A DNA stretch of 64,000 nucleotides from Thozetella sp. PMI_491 (taxonomy: Eukaryota > Ascomycota > Sordariomycetes > Chaetosphaeriales > Chaetosphaeriaceae): assembly GCA_021432635.1 (NCBI GenBank), contig MU270047.1, forward strand, positions 496,001 to 560,000, written 5' to 3'. Positions 1,339 through 7,362 of the stretch are shown here, piece after piece. The translations under genes and the position numbers were made by a program. A model generated the notes under the pieces. It was given only the letters and a program-made list of their open reading frames with translations, searched no databases and was not told the DNA's origin. The stretch's first letter is position 1; each line of letters begins with the position of its first letter.

Positions 1339-2043
1339 ATGCCCGAGTCGATATTTGTCGACGCTATTTCCATGCCTACATCTCCCAAATCAGGTGGTGA
1401 TCTCGACCAAGGCGCCACCTTGAGCCATAGTGGCGAGGACGAAGGTCACTCTGGCCACCATATCAACCACCCCAGCCCCGCGGTTCCTCATGCCTTCCCT
1501 ACCAACAAGACATGCCAAACCAGCTCTCACTCTTCAAAACCAACCGCTGAGTTGCGCATTAGCGATGAAGAATGTGATACTCTTGGAGACATGCTCAATG
1601 GGCGACTTGGTATAGAGCTCGAGAACGACAAGGCTTGCACCAAGCTTTGGGAAGCAGCCCTGTCAGTGAGGGCGGGGGAATATCATCAGGCAGAGCAAAC
1701 GACACTTCTCTGCTACCAGGATGTAGTCAAAAATCTTCACAACGACGCCGCCTTCTTGCAGGCTGTCTATGACTACAACCAACTGTCCAGAGAGGGCATG
1801 ACCATCGAGCTTCTTCGCAAGGCATTAGCCCCGAGAGCACTGACCGAAACCGAGCAATCCTTAATCAACATGTCCATTTCGGAAGCCCATATGCAAAACA
1901 ATCTCGCGTATCGAAACTTACCCCCAGCCGCCCCGGAAGTGGGCGTCTGGGATCTCATGGTCCTCAACGGATATCAGGTCCCCATCGAGTACTTCCATCT
2001 ACAACTCATACCCTCAGGGTTTGTATATTCCTTCGACGAATGA
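1339..2043 (+). CDS. Hypothetical protein, 234 residues
   Basis: A single uninterrupted frame starts at an ATG in acceptable context and ends in TGA. I do not recognise the family. Residues 1-70 are low-complexity, rich in Ser, His and Pro. From about residue 75 the protein looks folded and mostly helical, with many acidic and aromatic positions, for example ECDTLGDMLNGRLGIEL and a C-terminal stretch near VWDLMVLNGYQVP. No signal peptide, membrane segment or known catalytic motif is visible. It lies beside another unplaced gene in AT-richer DNA, which would fit a lineage-specific gene. No intron is required. Confidence 0.55.
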   Translation: MPESIFVDAISMPTSPKSGGDLDQGATLSHSGEDEGHSGHHINHPSPAVPHAFPTNKTCQTSSHSSKPTAELRISDEECDTLGDMLNGRLGIELENDKACTKLWEAALSVRAGEYHQAEQTTLLCYQDVVKNLHNDAAFLQAVYDYNQLSREGMTIELLRKALAPRALTETEQSLINMSISEAHMQNNLAYRNLPPAAPEVGVWDLMVLNGYQVPIEYFHLQLIPSGFVYSFDE

Positions 2044-3961: not shown

Positions 3962-4733
3962 CCATACGGACCATAAGGGTCGAAGCACAGATACAGATTA
4001 ATACATAGCTGGCTGAGATGGGGATCATGACCGAGGCACTGTGGTACCCTGAGCTTAGTGCATGTGCGGACGGGCCGATACTTCTAAGGCCTGAACGTTA
4101 TCCAGAGCAAGGGAACGCTCCCGCACAACTGATACAGTTCAGCCGTCTCATAAGAACAGACCTAATATCCAATACTGAAAGGGGCGGAATAAACAGAACA
4201 TCATGGAGCCTGCCCGCCATCTTGAGGCCAGACTTTACTTTCCATGGCTAACTACCTATGGCAGCACCGCTTGCGTGCCGCGGCCCGTCGGCCGAAAGTT
4301 TCTTAGCGAAGCTGCTTGAAGAAATTCCACTGCAGCAACCGATGGGGCTTCAAGTGCACCACCCCTCGTTACCCCACCTCGAGCCAACATCTTGACCAAC
4401 TAGAGATGGCGGGGATGTCGTCACCGAAGAGCCAAAGGTCGAGAGGGGCCGGCAGAGGGAGTCATTGAAAACGAGCTGTACGAATATTAGGTGTAAATTC
4501 GAGCTTGTACATTACCTAAGTGGATGTCTGAGGAGAAAAGTGTTATTCCATTATTCCAGCGGAGGCTAGCACGGATTTATAATCACTCGAGAAGGAGTGC
4601 AGCCCCAGGGGAAGGAGACCTCTTCCACCAACCAAGACGGCATCGACAATAAATACCGCCTTCTTTTTTAAAGAGAACAAAAAATAAATATATACAGAAA
4701 CCCGATACTGTCACCACTCCGACCGCTTTCCAA
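3962..4733. other. Intergenic, no gene seen
   Basis: An ATG-initiated frame of 77 codons at 4018-4251 is the longest feature and has no family resemblance, so it is not called. An A/T-rich part near 4660-4700 precedes the transferase gene and may belong to its promoter. Confidence 0.5.
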
Positions 4734-6179
4734 ATGGCTACCCCCACTGAGATTCACCTGTACACTACGCAGACACCAAATGGCATAAAAGTGTCGATCC
4801 TACTCGAGGAACTGGGCCTGGCCTACAAGGTGAGCTGGACAGCATCCTTATGGTATCTGCTCCTGAGCGTCGTGCTGACTTTCTCTAGACTACCAAGATT
4901 GCTCTGAGCGAGAACACCCAGAAGGCATGAGGGCCCTGACATGCAGCCCCGCTTCTCTAGAAGAGAAGACACCTAAAAAGAAGGCACACGGCCTCTATAA
5001 GCTAACCAATAGTAGGAGCCGTGGTTCCTCGAGATTAACCCCAACGGCCGCATTCCTGCGCTCACCGATGTACATACTGACGGAAAACCAATCCGCCTGT
5101 TCGAGAGCGGCTCCATCTTGCAGTACCTCGTTGACCGGTATGACCCCGAGCACAAGATATCATACCCGTATGGCTCGCGAGAGTACTGGGAGGCGAACAA
5201 CTGGGTAAATATTGCTTACGTCCGCGCATCAGAAAGCTAGATTTCTAACGCTGCCGCAGCTTTTCTGGCAAATGGGAGGCCTAGGGCCAATGTGAGTACT
5301 TGCGTGTCCTTGATCCCGCCTCTAGACCATCCTGGAAGTAGCTGTATACCTGGAACGCCTTTGGCATCCGCTCCACCCCCGAGACGTCACTTCGAACTCC
5401 AAAGACATTCTTCAAAGTTTGACAAAATAGCTGACACTTCCTAGGCAAGGGTAGGGACCCGTTTGGTTTGTATAAAGATCCATATGCGCGCGGCTGACCC
5501 TTCTTGCCTTACAGACAAGCCAACCACTTTGGACGTAAGTGGCACCCCCATGGCGGTAGCCAGTTCCTTCCTTGTACTTGTCACTGACTTTGTGTAGGCT
5601 AGTACGTATTTCGCGACCAAATTACCCCCCTTCAACTTCCTAGTTTGCCTACGAATGGACAATCGCAACCGATTTGGTTCCTAATTCGAGGTTTTCCGGT
5701 ATGTCACAATCCCGCTCAAGGCAATTATTAACCCCAGATGCGGGAAGTGCCCCTGAGAAGATTCAGTACGGCATAGATAGATACCGAAACGAGACCCGCC
5801 GCTTGTACAAGGTCATGGACACGCAGTTGGCGAAGTCAACTTCAGGCTTCCTTGTTGGCGACCGCCTCACTATCGCCGACATTTCAGCTTGGGGTTGGGT
5901 CGCCGCTCACCGTATGTCTCAGCCCGCCTATAACGTGTGTTCCCATATTGACTAGAGTGCGCCATAGACTGGGCTGGATTGTCGCTCGCCGAGCTTCCCC
6001 ACCTAGATGCCTGGCTGGACAAGCTGCTGGTGCGCCCCGGCTTCGAGCGTGGTCGGAATATTCCCGACCGCCACACAGCCTTTGACCAGCGGAAGCTGAC
6101 GGAGGAGGAGCTCGAGAAAGCAGCCCAGGCCAGTCGCGCCTGGGTGCAGAAGGGCATGGCAGAGGATGCCAAGCAGTAA
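4734..6179 (+). CDS. Ure2-like glutathione S-transferase, nine exons including two microexons
   Basis: Exons: 4734-4829, 4889-4924, 5016-5204, 5260-5291, 5445-5450, 5515-5534, 5598-5601, 5748-5911, 5968-6179, giving 252 residues, normal for the family. Residues 7-95 form the thioredoxin-like glutathione-binding half, with TPNGIKVSILLEELGL (Asn16 of the TPNG motif) and the ESGSILQYL loop. The helical half has the family core GPMQGQANHF, RYAPEKI and VGDRLTIADI. The core is complete only when 6-nt (GCAAGG) and 4-nt (GCTA) exons are spliced in. The second intron begins with GC instead of GT. It probably conjugates or reduces electrophiles with glutathione in the cytosol, or is a Ure2-type regulator. 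If splicing fails at the GC donor, the frame stops after 45 residues. The last acceptor has an in-frame alternative at 5955. Confidence 0.8.
5445..5450 (+). other. 6-nt microexon of the transferase gene
   Basis: The hexamer GCAAGG is bounded by CTTCCTAG and GTAGGG. It completes the codons AT|G CAA GG|A, giving Met-Gln-Gly between Pro and Gln, as in the family motif GPMQGQANHF. The flanking introns (153 and 64 nt) each have a CTGAC branch site. Skipping it would keep the frame but give GPIQANHF. Confidence 0.7.
5598..5601 (+). other. 4-nt microexon of the transferase gene
   Basis: The tetramer GCTA is bounded by GTGTAG, with a CTGAC branch site just upstream, and by the strong donor GTACGT. 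It completes C|GC TA|T, giving Arg-Tyr of the conserved RYAPEKI motif, provided the next acceptor is GGGAAG at 5747. Omitting it with acceptor CCCCAG at 5737 also keeps the frame but gives HAGSAPEKI. Confidence 0.6.
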
Positions 6180-7362
6180 AGTCGATTGGCTATGTGCTCT
6201 GTAGGTGTAGGAAGCACGGTTGGTCTGAGAAACATCTCTGAACCTGTAACGCATGGAGAAACCCGTTGGAGCCGAGCTAGAGATAGTACGCGTTCAAGAC
6301 AGCTGTTGAGCCCATAGGAGACGCATCAGATCGTTGGAATGAGCACCGAAATGGAGCGTGAAGATGTCGCTTTGAGCCATTATAAACCTCACCCATTGAT
6401 CTAGAGTTTACACAGGGAGCTAATTCGTGGTCTTCCACCAAACAGCTAGGAAAACTTGGGTAGTCACGCGTAAGAAACGTGGTGACGATGGCTGCTTGTT
6501 ATACTGATATTGCTCAGCCCCCTCAATAGGAAGCAAAGATGTGTAATCTCGGGCTTGGCTTTCTGAGGAACAGCAGAAGCGCTGACCCGTATAAATACAA
6601 CTAAAGTTGCAGAAAATTCATTAACAATGAGACTGACGAACTAGACTAATAGAGGGCCAGATAATCTTCCACAAACGGAGGTGCTGGTATCTCGACGCTG
6701 TAACCAAATCGCAAACTGTTGGCACCTGCGAGTCCGGCACGTTGAGCTCGCGGGCAGCATATCGCCAGTTCCGACCATGACATATATGTCATCTCTGAAC
6801 TTAAGTCTACCCGCCTTTATTTCCATTGATAGCTTACTCCTTGCTGCCATCTCTGCTTGGCGTTTCTCCGCTGGGTCGGAAGCAGACATACCTACTCTCA
6901 TACTTGAAACCCTAACCCTTGGCTAGGAACTGGACCCAGTCAGGAGATAAACTCGGGAGATGCGTGCGCATCTTACTACACAGCTCTTGAGCATGGGATG
7001 GCCTGAGAAATGTGTAGCATAGAAAATCGTAGGAGCCTGTTGGACGTACAAGTCGGAGAACAGCCATCGCCGGCACATACCCGGTATGGGTGGTCAGAGA
7101 GACGAACGTATCTCAGATGTCCACGGAGTAATAATTAAATACTTCTTCCTCAAGCGGCGAGCGAGATCCATGGGAGGCAAGTGGGGCAGCAGGGGTAGTG
7201 TGGATGGCCCATGCTTGATTCGCCACCGTTGTTTCGCTGGAAATTTACCACGCGAACCGAACCATCCATCCAACTTTCCTCCTTCTTTGCACTGCAACCA
7301 ATTTTGCGACCCTATCGCCGCCTGACGAACGCTCATCACCGCCAAGCGGCCCCGAAATCGCC
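6180..7362. other. Intergenic, no gene seen
   Basis: This stretch holds only short unrelated frames. The last 150 bases before 7363 are C-rich and likely form the leader of the BBP gene. No repeats or RNA genes were noticed. Confidence 0.5.

What the first reader, a model, noticed from the sequence alone, without database searches (positions are those of the whole stretch)
5292..5747. Two microexons (6 nt and 4 nt) inside the core of a glutathione transferase gene
The conserved family core GPMQGQANHF-RYAPEKI cannot be encoded with ordinary exons here. It appears exactly when GCAAGG (5445-5450), a 20-nt exon (5515-5534) and GCTA (5598-5601) are spliced in. Each neighbour intron has its own donor, and the three upstream introns have a clear CTGAC branch site. 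Three exons totalling 30 nt within 450 bases is extreme for a fungal gene, and a 4-nt exon raises the question of how the spliceosome defines it.
Basis: partly seen in the sequence, partly recalled or inferred. Interest (0 to 1): 0.82.

Follow-up and report, generated by a model that had tools for sequence, protein, structure and literature searches.

The report
Jumping intron created a 4-nucleotide exon
A probably fungal glutathione transferase gene carries two extra introns that cut off exons of only 6 and 4 bases; one of those introns is a copy of a repeated intron found in other genes of the same genome, which suggests that mobile introns landing beside old ones can create ultra-short exons.

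Summary
Splicing in GCAAGG (5445-5450), the 20-nt exon (5515-5534) and GCTA (5598-5601) gives an open glutathione transferase frame. The best evidence is a paralogue, L029. Its six introns lie at coding positions 96, 132, 321, 359, 379 and 547. The window gene has these six plus 353 and 383, so L029's 38-nt exon is 32+6 here and its 168-nt exon is 4+164. The 20-nt exon is therefore older; the 6-nt and 4-nt exons come from two added introns, A (153 nt) and B (146 nt).

Intron B is a repeat. 27 related copies were found elsewhere in the genome. The resolved ones are sense-strand introns of unrelated genes, alike from a GTACGT-like donor to the final AG. B is thus a degenerate introner-like element that landed 4 nt from an older splice site. 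Two other copies border predicted 26-nt exons. Intron A has no detectable relative.

No RNA evidence was available, and the organism is not identified. An in-frame bypass of both microexons exists but scores 23 bits worse. Introners and microexons are both known; the combination is a new variant.

The parts
4734..4829 (+). exon 1 of the glutathione transferase (96 nt)
   Evidence: same length in L029
4889..4924 (+). exon 2 (36 nt); followed by a GC-AG intron
   Evidence: L029 has a GT donor at the same coding position
5016..5204 (+). exon 3 (189 nt)
5260..5291 (+). exon 4 (32 nt); first part of the 38-nt exon of the paralogue
5292..5444 (+). intron A, 153 nt, absent from L029, no relative found, origin unknown
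   Evidence: only itself in the genome at E <= 10; no match to the introner family
5445..5450 (+). 6-nt microexon GCAAGG
5451..5514 (+). older intron (64 nt), shared with L029
   Evidence: coding position 359 in both
5515..5534 (+). 20-nt exon, also 20 nt in L029
5535..5597 (+). older intron (63 nt), shared with L029; L030 has an intron in the matching codon, same phase
   Evidence: coding position 379; L030
5598..5601 (+). 4-nt microexon GCTA
   Evidence: its 3' end coincides with the 5' end of the introner family
5602..5747 (+). intron B, 146 nt, degenerate introner-like element with its own donor GTACGT, branch-like TTAAC and acceptor AAG
   Evidence: (E 6e-30)
5748..5911 (+). exon 8 (164 nt)
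   Evidence: 4+164 = the 168-nt exon of L029
5968..6179 (+). last exon (212 nt with stop); acceptor CATAG preferred over GACTAG, which would start the exon at 5956
   Evidence: 265.2 against 259.0 bits

Best explanation
This is an intact glutathione transferase gene of the Ure2p/YfcG-like kind in a genome that looks fungal. It already had a 20-nt exon between two short introns. Later two longer introns entered the flanking exons: A, 6 nt before the older donor at 5451, and B, 4 nt after the older acceptor at 5597. Each cut off a microexon without adding or losing coding bases. B is a degenerate copy of an introner-like element, a repeated intron mostly of about 145 nt that carries its own splice signals. 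A may be a more decayed element of another family. The four introns are probably removed one by one by intron definition, in any order, so the 4-nt and 6-nt exons need no recognition of their own. Shown: the sequences, the paralogue comparison, the repeat family. Inferred: the splicing itself, its order, the direction of change for A (parsimony) and the origin of A.
For: Intron positions in coding coordinates: window 96, 132, 321, 353, 359, 379, 383, 547; L029 96, 132, 321, 359, 379, 547. 13 copies of the element align end to end. Model R1, built from those 13, gives 23 matches in 42 sources, all at E <= 2.5e-11: the 13, L047, and 9 in L054-L062; 5 more in L119-L122. The copies outside the model were first found by BLAST or pattern, so the model confirms rather than discovers them. 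Intron B is the only match in the 64-kb window up to E 10. Reading frames join across the element in unrelated genes, and a Pfam domain runs across the junction in 11 of 19 tested hosts, in L042 by one residue only. A 30-base pattern of the 3' end, up to 3 mismatches, has 12 matches and its reversed control 0. Profile of 55 bacterial relatives: both microexons 265.2 bits, 5738 acceptor 254.8, 6-nt exon skipped 251.9, neither 242.5. With a profile whose alignment never contained the query: 265.6, 255.1, 252.2, 242.9.
Against: No transcript data. Intron A has no relative, so 'introner' covers only B. B's acceptor is AAG, where the 20 other copies tabulated have TAG (18) or CAG (2). An in-frame bypass acceptor lies at 5737. 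In the bacterial relatives M118 (49/55), G120 (54/55) and Y128 (53/55) are conserved, but Q119 is not and R127 is in 14/55, so part of the core proves little. A GRYAP-restoring microexon is not very rare by chance (129 of 20,000). No orthologue from another fungus could be examined; everything rests on paralogues in one genome.
Confidence: 0.86

Rival explanations
1. The microexons are not used: the spliceosome joins 5291 to 5515 and 5534 to 5738, giving GPIQANHFGHAGSAPEKI.
For: Both joins keep the frame and give a full-length protein. CAG at 5737 is by general knowledge a better acceptor triplet than AAG at 5747.
Against: 22.7 bits worse against the bacterial profile (the same). It would change an exon pattern that otherwise matches L029 to the base up to coding position 547. 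Homology to the introner family puts the acceptor at 5747, 16 nt from the branch-like A as in the family consensus, while 5737 is 6 nt from it (that 6 nt is too close is inference).
Confidence: 0.07
2. Both forms are made: inclusion or skipping is regulated and gives two enzyme isoforms.
For: Skipping is in frame for the 6-nt exon, and for the 4-nt exon through the 5738 acceptor.
Against: Skipped forms lose residues that are nearly invariant in the 55 bacterial relatives. In-frame skipping of a 6-nt exon follows from its length alone.
Confidence: 0.1
3. The gene is a decaying pseudogene and the apparent microexons are remnants.
For: A GC-AG intron and an unusual density of introns.
Against: No stop or frameshift over 252 codons, GST_N and GST_C above their cut-offs, exon lengths kept against L029 up to the last exon.
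Confidence: 0.03

Closest known systems
Introner-like elements of Dothideomycetes (Collemare 2015, PMC4457414; abstract and the whole results-and-discussion section read)
   Same: Repeated introns in coding genes, longer than regular introns, degenerating with age. Three of them lie 1, 8 and 3 nt from positions that hold introns in other species. The paper also mentions a peroxidase position, marked by many introns within 15 nt, that holds two introns in Lentithecium fluviatile.
   Different: In those three cases the nearby intron is in another species; here element and older intron coexist in one gene and leave a 4-nt exon. Sequence relation to those families could not be tested.
Sister stwintrons and symmetrical introns of Hypoxylaceae (Fekete 2021, PMC8469720; abstract, two of three parts of the results and one of two parts of the discussion read)
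   Same: Dozens of copies, seamless insertion on the coding strand, no target duplication, terminal inverted repeats that fade in divergent copies.
   Different: Here single introns, mostly about 145 nt, with a short imperfect inverted repeat near the ends; no stwintron seen. There no bias at the exon border; here A or T precedes the element in 20 of 21 copies.
Introners across eukaryotes (Gozashti 2022, PMC9860276; passages and one section read)
   Same: Ascomycete families there have no TSDs and are an outlier; no TSD is evident here by eye.
   Different: Ascomycete families there have no TIRs; a weak inverted repeat is present in the consensus here.
Microexon of Xlr2 in Trichoderma virens (PMC11121469; passages read)
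   Same: A microexon in a filamentous fungus.
   Different: A regulated switch in a transcription factor; here probably constitutive and traceable to intron gain.
Ultra-short exons of plants and animals (PMC4674806, PMC8831610, PMC9929638; only the starts of the abstracts in search listings)
   Same: Exons of 1-15 nt are known, including a constitutive 4-bp exon in MPC1.
   Different: No introner origin is mentioned in the lines seen.

Membership tests
Introner-like element (intron B) | Many similar copies dispersed in the genome | tested here: met
   28 copies including B: 23, 1, 4; lower bound, since searches were capped
Introner-like element (intron B) | Similarity begins and ends at the splice sites | tested here: met
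   exceptions: L047 and L061 match only the 3' part and L121:1522-1647 lacks the first 17 model positions
Introner-like element (intron B) | Copies are spliced introns of unrelated genes | tested here: met
   by sequence only: frames join; Pfam across 11 of 19 junctions; L061, L120 and L121 not resolved; RNA not available
Introner-like element (intron B) | New position, absent from the related gene | tested here: met
   L029 lacks it; L030 also has no intron there
Introner-like element (intron B) | Near-identical recent copies | tested here: not met
   pairwise identity 59-79%, median 68%, among 19 copies: an old, degenerate family
Introner-like element (intron A) | Similar copies in the genome | tested here: not met
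   only itself at E <= 10; no family match
DNA-transposon type introner | Target site duplication and terminal inverted repeats | tested here: inconclusive
   no duplication evident by eye in 21 copies; consensus inverted repeat reached by 3 of 2000 plain shuffles; of 13 single copies, 5 have 10 or fewer of 300 shuffles at their score and 8, B among them, have more
Ure2p/YfcG-like glutathione transferase | GST_N and GST_C domains, solved relatives of that class | tested here: met
   (run on the model with the 5956 acceptor)
Microexon | Exon of 30 nt or less included in mRNA | not testable with these tools
   length met; inclusion is inferred from frame, paralogue and introner ends

The most novel reading that the evidence does not exclude
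Introner insertion next to older introns is a general source of microexons in fungi, and the retained old introns 4 nt and 24 nt away show that the element entered the gene as genomic DNA (or unspliced RNA), not by reverse splicing into mature mRNA followed by cDNA recombination. Intron A would be a second, more decayed element in the same spot.
Probability: 0.35. Interest if true: 0.75.

Novelty: new variant of a known kind. Interest (0 to 1): 0.62.

Why it matters
It gives a mechanical origin for exons too small for exon definition. The ends of the repeat fix two splice sites without relying on the protein. An introner 4 nt from an intron that the paralogue shares also limits how introners can move: a copy that passed through mature mRNA and cDNA would be expected to erase its neighbour. 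Gene finders that forbid exons of a few bases would break such genes.

Tried and rejected
Intron A as a member of B's family: rejected; its ends show no inverted repeat either (201 of 300 shuffles reach its score). A structured RNA in the introns: no Rfam match at gathering score in 4600-6300, and RNAalifold gave no consensus base pair for the family. Acceptor giving a last exon from 5956: replaced by 5968, which scores better and drops four residues that L029 lacks. A bypass test with the exon starting at 5739 was a coordinate slip of mine; one search does it correctly at 5738. The first bacterial profile came from an alignment that also held the query; one search repeats it without the query, with the same ranking. 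Orthologues from other fungi: no fungal collection was offered; the relatives used are paralogues in the same genome and 56 bacterial loci, of which 55 were used and one short translation was dropped.

Print: searches (microexon + fungi, 61 papers, 30 listed; 133, 20 listed; introner-like elements + fungi, 22 listed; introner + microexon, 2 papers, neither about this by title and abstract start; 126, 20 listed; 32, 15 listed; 61, 15 listed) showed no paper on an introner-made microexon in the rows seen. This is an open-licence library only.

Full report
What is there. The window (contig C33 of a 72.3-Mb genome in 157 contigs) holds a glutathione transferase gene at 4734-6179. With nine exons it reads 252 codons without a stop. 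It has GST_N and GST_C domains above their cut-offs. The solved relatives are YfcG/Ure2p-like transferases; the best match by phmmer is 4ivf, E 7e-56. Searches used a model that is four residues longer at the last intron.

Is it chance? A microexon that restores the first half exactly arises in 2 of 20,000 shuffles, and one that restores the second half in 129 of 20,000, or 16 with a branch motif. Against a profile of 55 bacterial relatives the full form scores 265.2 bits. With the 5738 acceptor it scores 254.8, without the 6-nt exon 251.9, with neither 242.5; a profile aligned without the query gives 265.6, 255.1, 252.2 and 242.9. M118, G120 and Y128 are conserved in 49, 54 and 53 of 55; Q119 is not, and R127 is in 14.

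The paralogue is the strongest check. L029 (C1:715800-717400), whose exons match the window protein at 63-79% identity, has seven exons of 96, 36, 189, 38, 20, 168 and 224 nt and introns of 48-57 nt. Its six introns are at coding positions 96, 132, 321, 359, 379 and 547. The window gene has all six and two more, at 353 and 383. So 38 = 32+6 and 168 = 4+164, to the base; only the last exon differs in length (212 against 224 nt). The 20-nt exon is shared. L030 (C31) lacks the intron at 359 but has one in the codon matching 379, in the same phase. B is a gain, since it is a repeat; for A a gain rests on parsimony only. At 153 and 146 nt they are longer than the other six (44-91 nt; the last becomes 56 nt with the 5968 acceptor).

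Intron B is a repeated element. A BLAST of B against the genome found two relatives, 76% and 71% identical. The similarity starts at GTACGT, at the donor, and stops at or next to the acceptor. Further searches and a sequence model built from 13 copies give 28 copies including B: 23 in 42 sources, one in L119, four in L120-L122, two of them in one locus. This is a lower bound. Pairwise identity among 19 copies is 59-79%, so the family is old and no fresh copy was seen.

Copies are introns of other genes. The frame joins across the element in genes that look like V-ATPase subunit A, a Cys/Met metabolism enzyme, an MFS transporter, an RTA1-like protein, GH92, GH125, an arabinofuranosidase, a semialdehyde dehydrogenase, an alcohol dehydrogenase and others (the subunit name is recalled). 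L056 also joins, in phase 2. Of 19 hosts given to Pfam, 11 have a domain across the junction (L042 by one residue only), 3 have one that does not cross it (L049, L050 and, below cut-off, L058), and 5 have no match (L041, L046, L054, L057, L059). L061, L120 and the two L121 copies remain unresolved; L047 keeps only the 3' part. The base before the element is A in 14 and T in 6 of 21 copies and G in one, so it is not at the usual AG/G site; no target duplication is evident by eye. The consensus has an imperfect inverted repeat near its ends (3 of 2000 plain shuffles reach its score), which B itself has lost.

Other short exons. In L048 (GH125) and L060 (helicase) an introner copy follows a predicted upstream intron after only 26 nt, and the hand-joined proteins match GH125 and AAA_12 across that exon. 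So 3 of the 28 copies border an exon of 30 nt or less, as far as looked at; the upstream side was read closely for 5 copies besides B, the rest by open frame length only. This is about what random insertion in intron-rich genes might give (rough inference), so no targeting is claimed.

How it probably works. Each of the four introns between 5292 and 5747 has donor, branch-like motif and acceptor within 63 to 153 nt, which fits intron definition. After either neighbour is removed, the 4-nt exon is part of a longer exon. The repeat fixes the ends of B without use of the protein: the acceptor at 5747 lies 16 nt after the branch-like A, as in the consensus, while the bypass CAG at 5737 is 6 nt from it. 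The intron at 379 is shared by the paralogue and so was most likely in place when B entered 4 nt away. Had B gone through mature mRNA and a cDNA copy, that neighbour should have been lost. Insertion into genomic DNA, such as the direct reverse splicing discussed in PMC8469720, fits better. This is inference from one polarised case.

What is known. Introner-like elements and fungal microexons are both in print (PMC4457414, PMC8469720, PMC9860276, PMC11121469; parts read are given under Closest known systems). The searches named under Tried and rejected showed no paper on an introner-made microexon in the rows seen. The nearest precedent is the remark in PMC4457414 on elements 1-8 nt from intron positions of other species.

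Noticed in passing
4925-5015: The second intron of the gene has a GC donor (GCATGA); the paralogue L029 has GT at the same coding position.
   Followed up: partly
L121:780-876 and 1522-1647 (minus strand): Two introner copies lie 645 nt apart on the same strand, perhaps in one gene.
   Followed up: no
L119:1460-1602 (minus strand): One copy seems to have mutated its donor to GCACGT, a possible GC-AG introner.
   Followed up: partly
L047:1581-1679, L061:1583-1663: Copies that keep only the 3' part of the element; in L047 a different donor could serve.
   Followed up: partly
5956-5967: Two possible acceptors for the last intron, 12 nt apart and both in frame.
   Followed up: yes
L031:600-780: The GST gene on C8 holds a run of C and a masked N stretch flanked by a repeated sequence where the GPM core is interrupted.
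   Followed up: no
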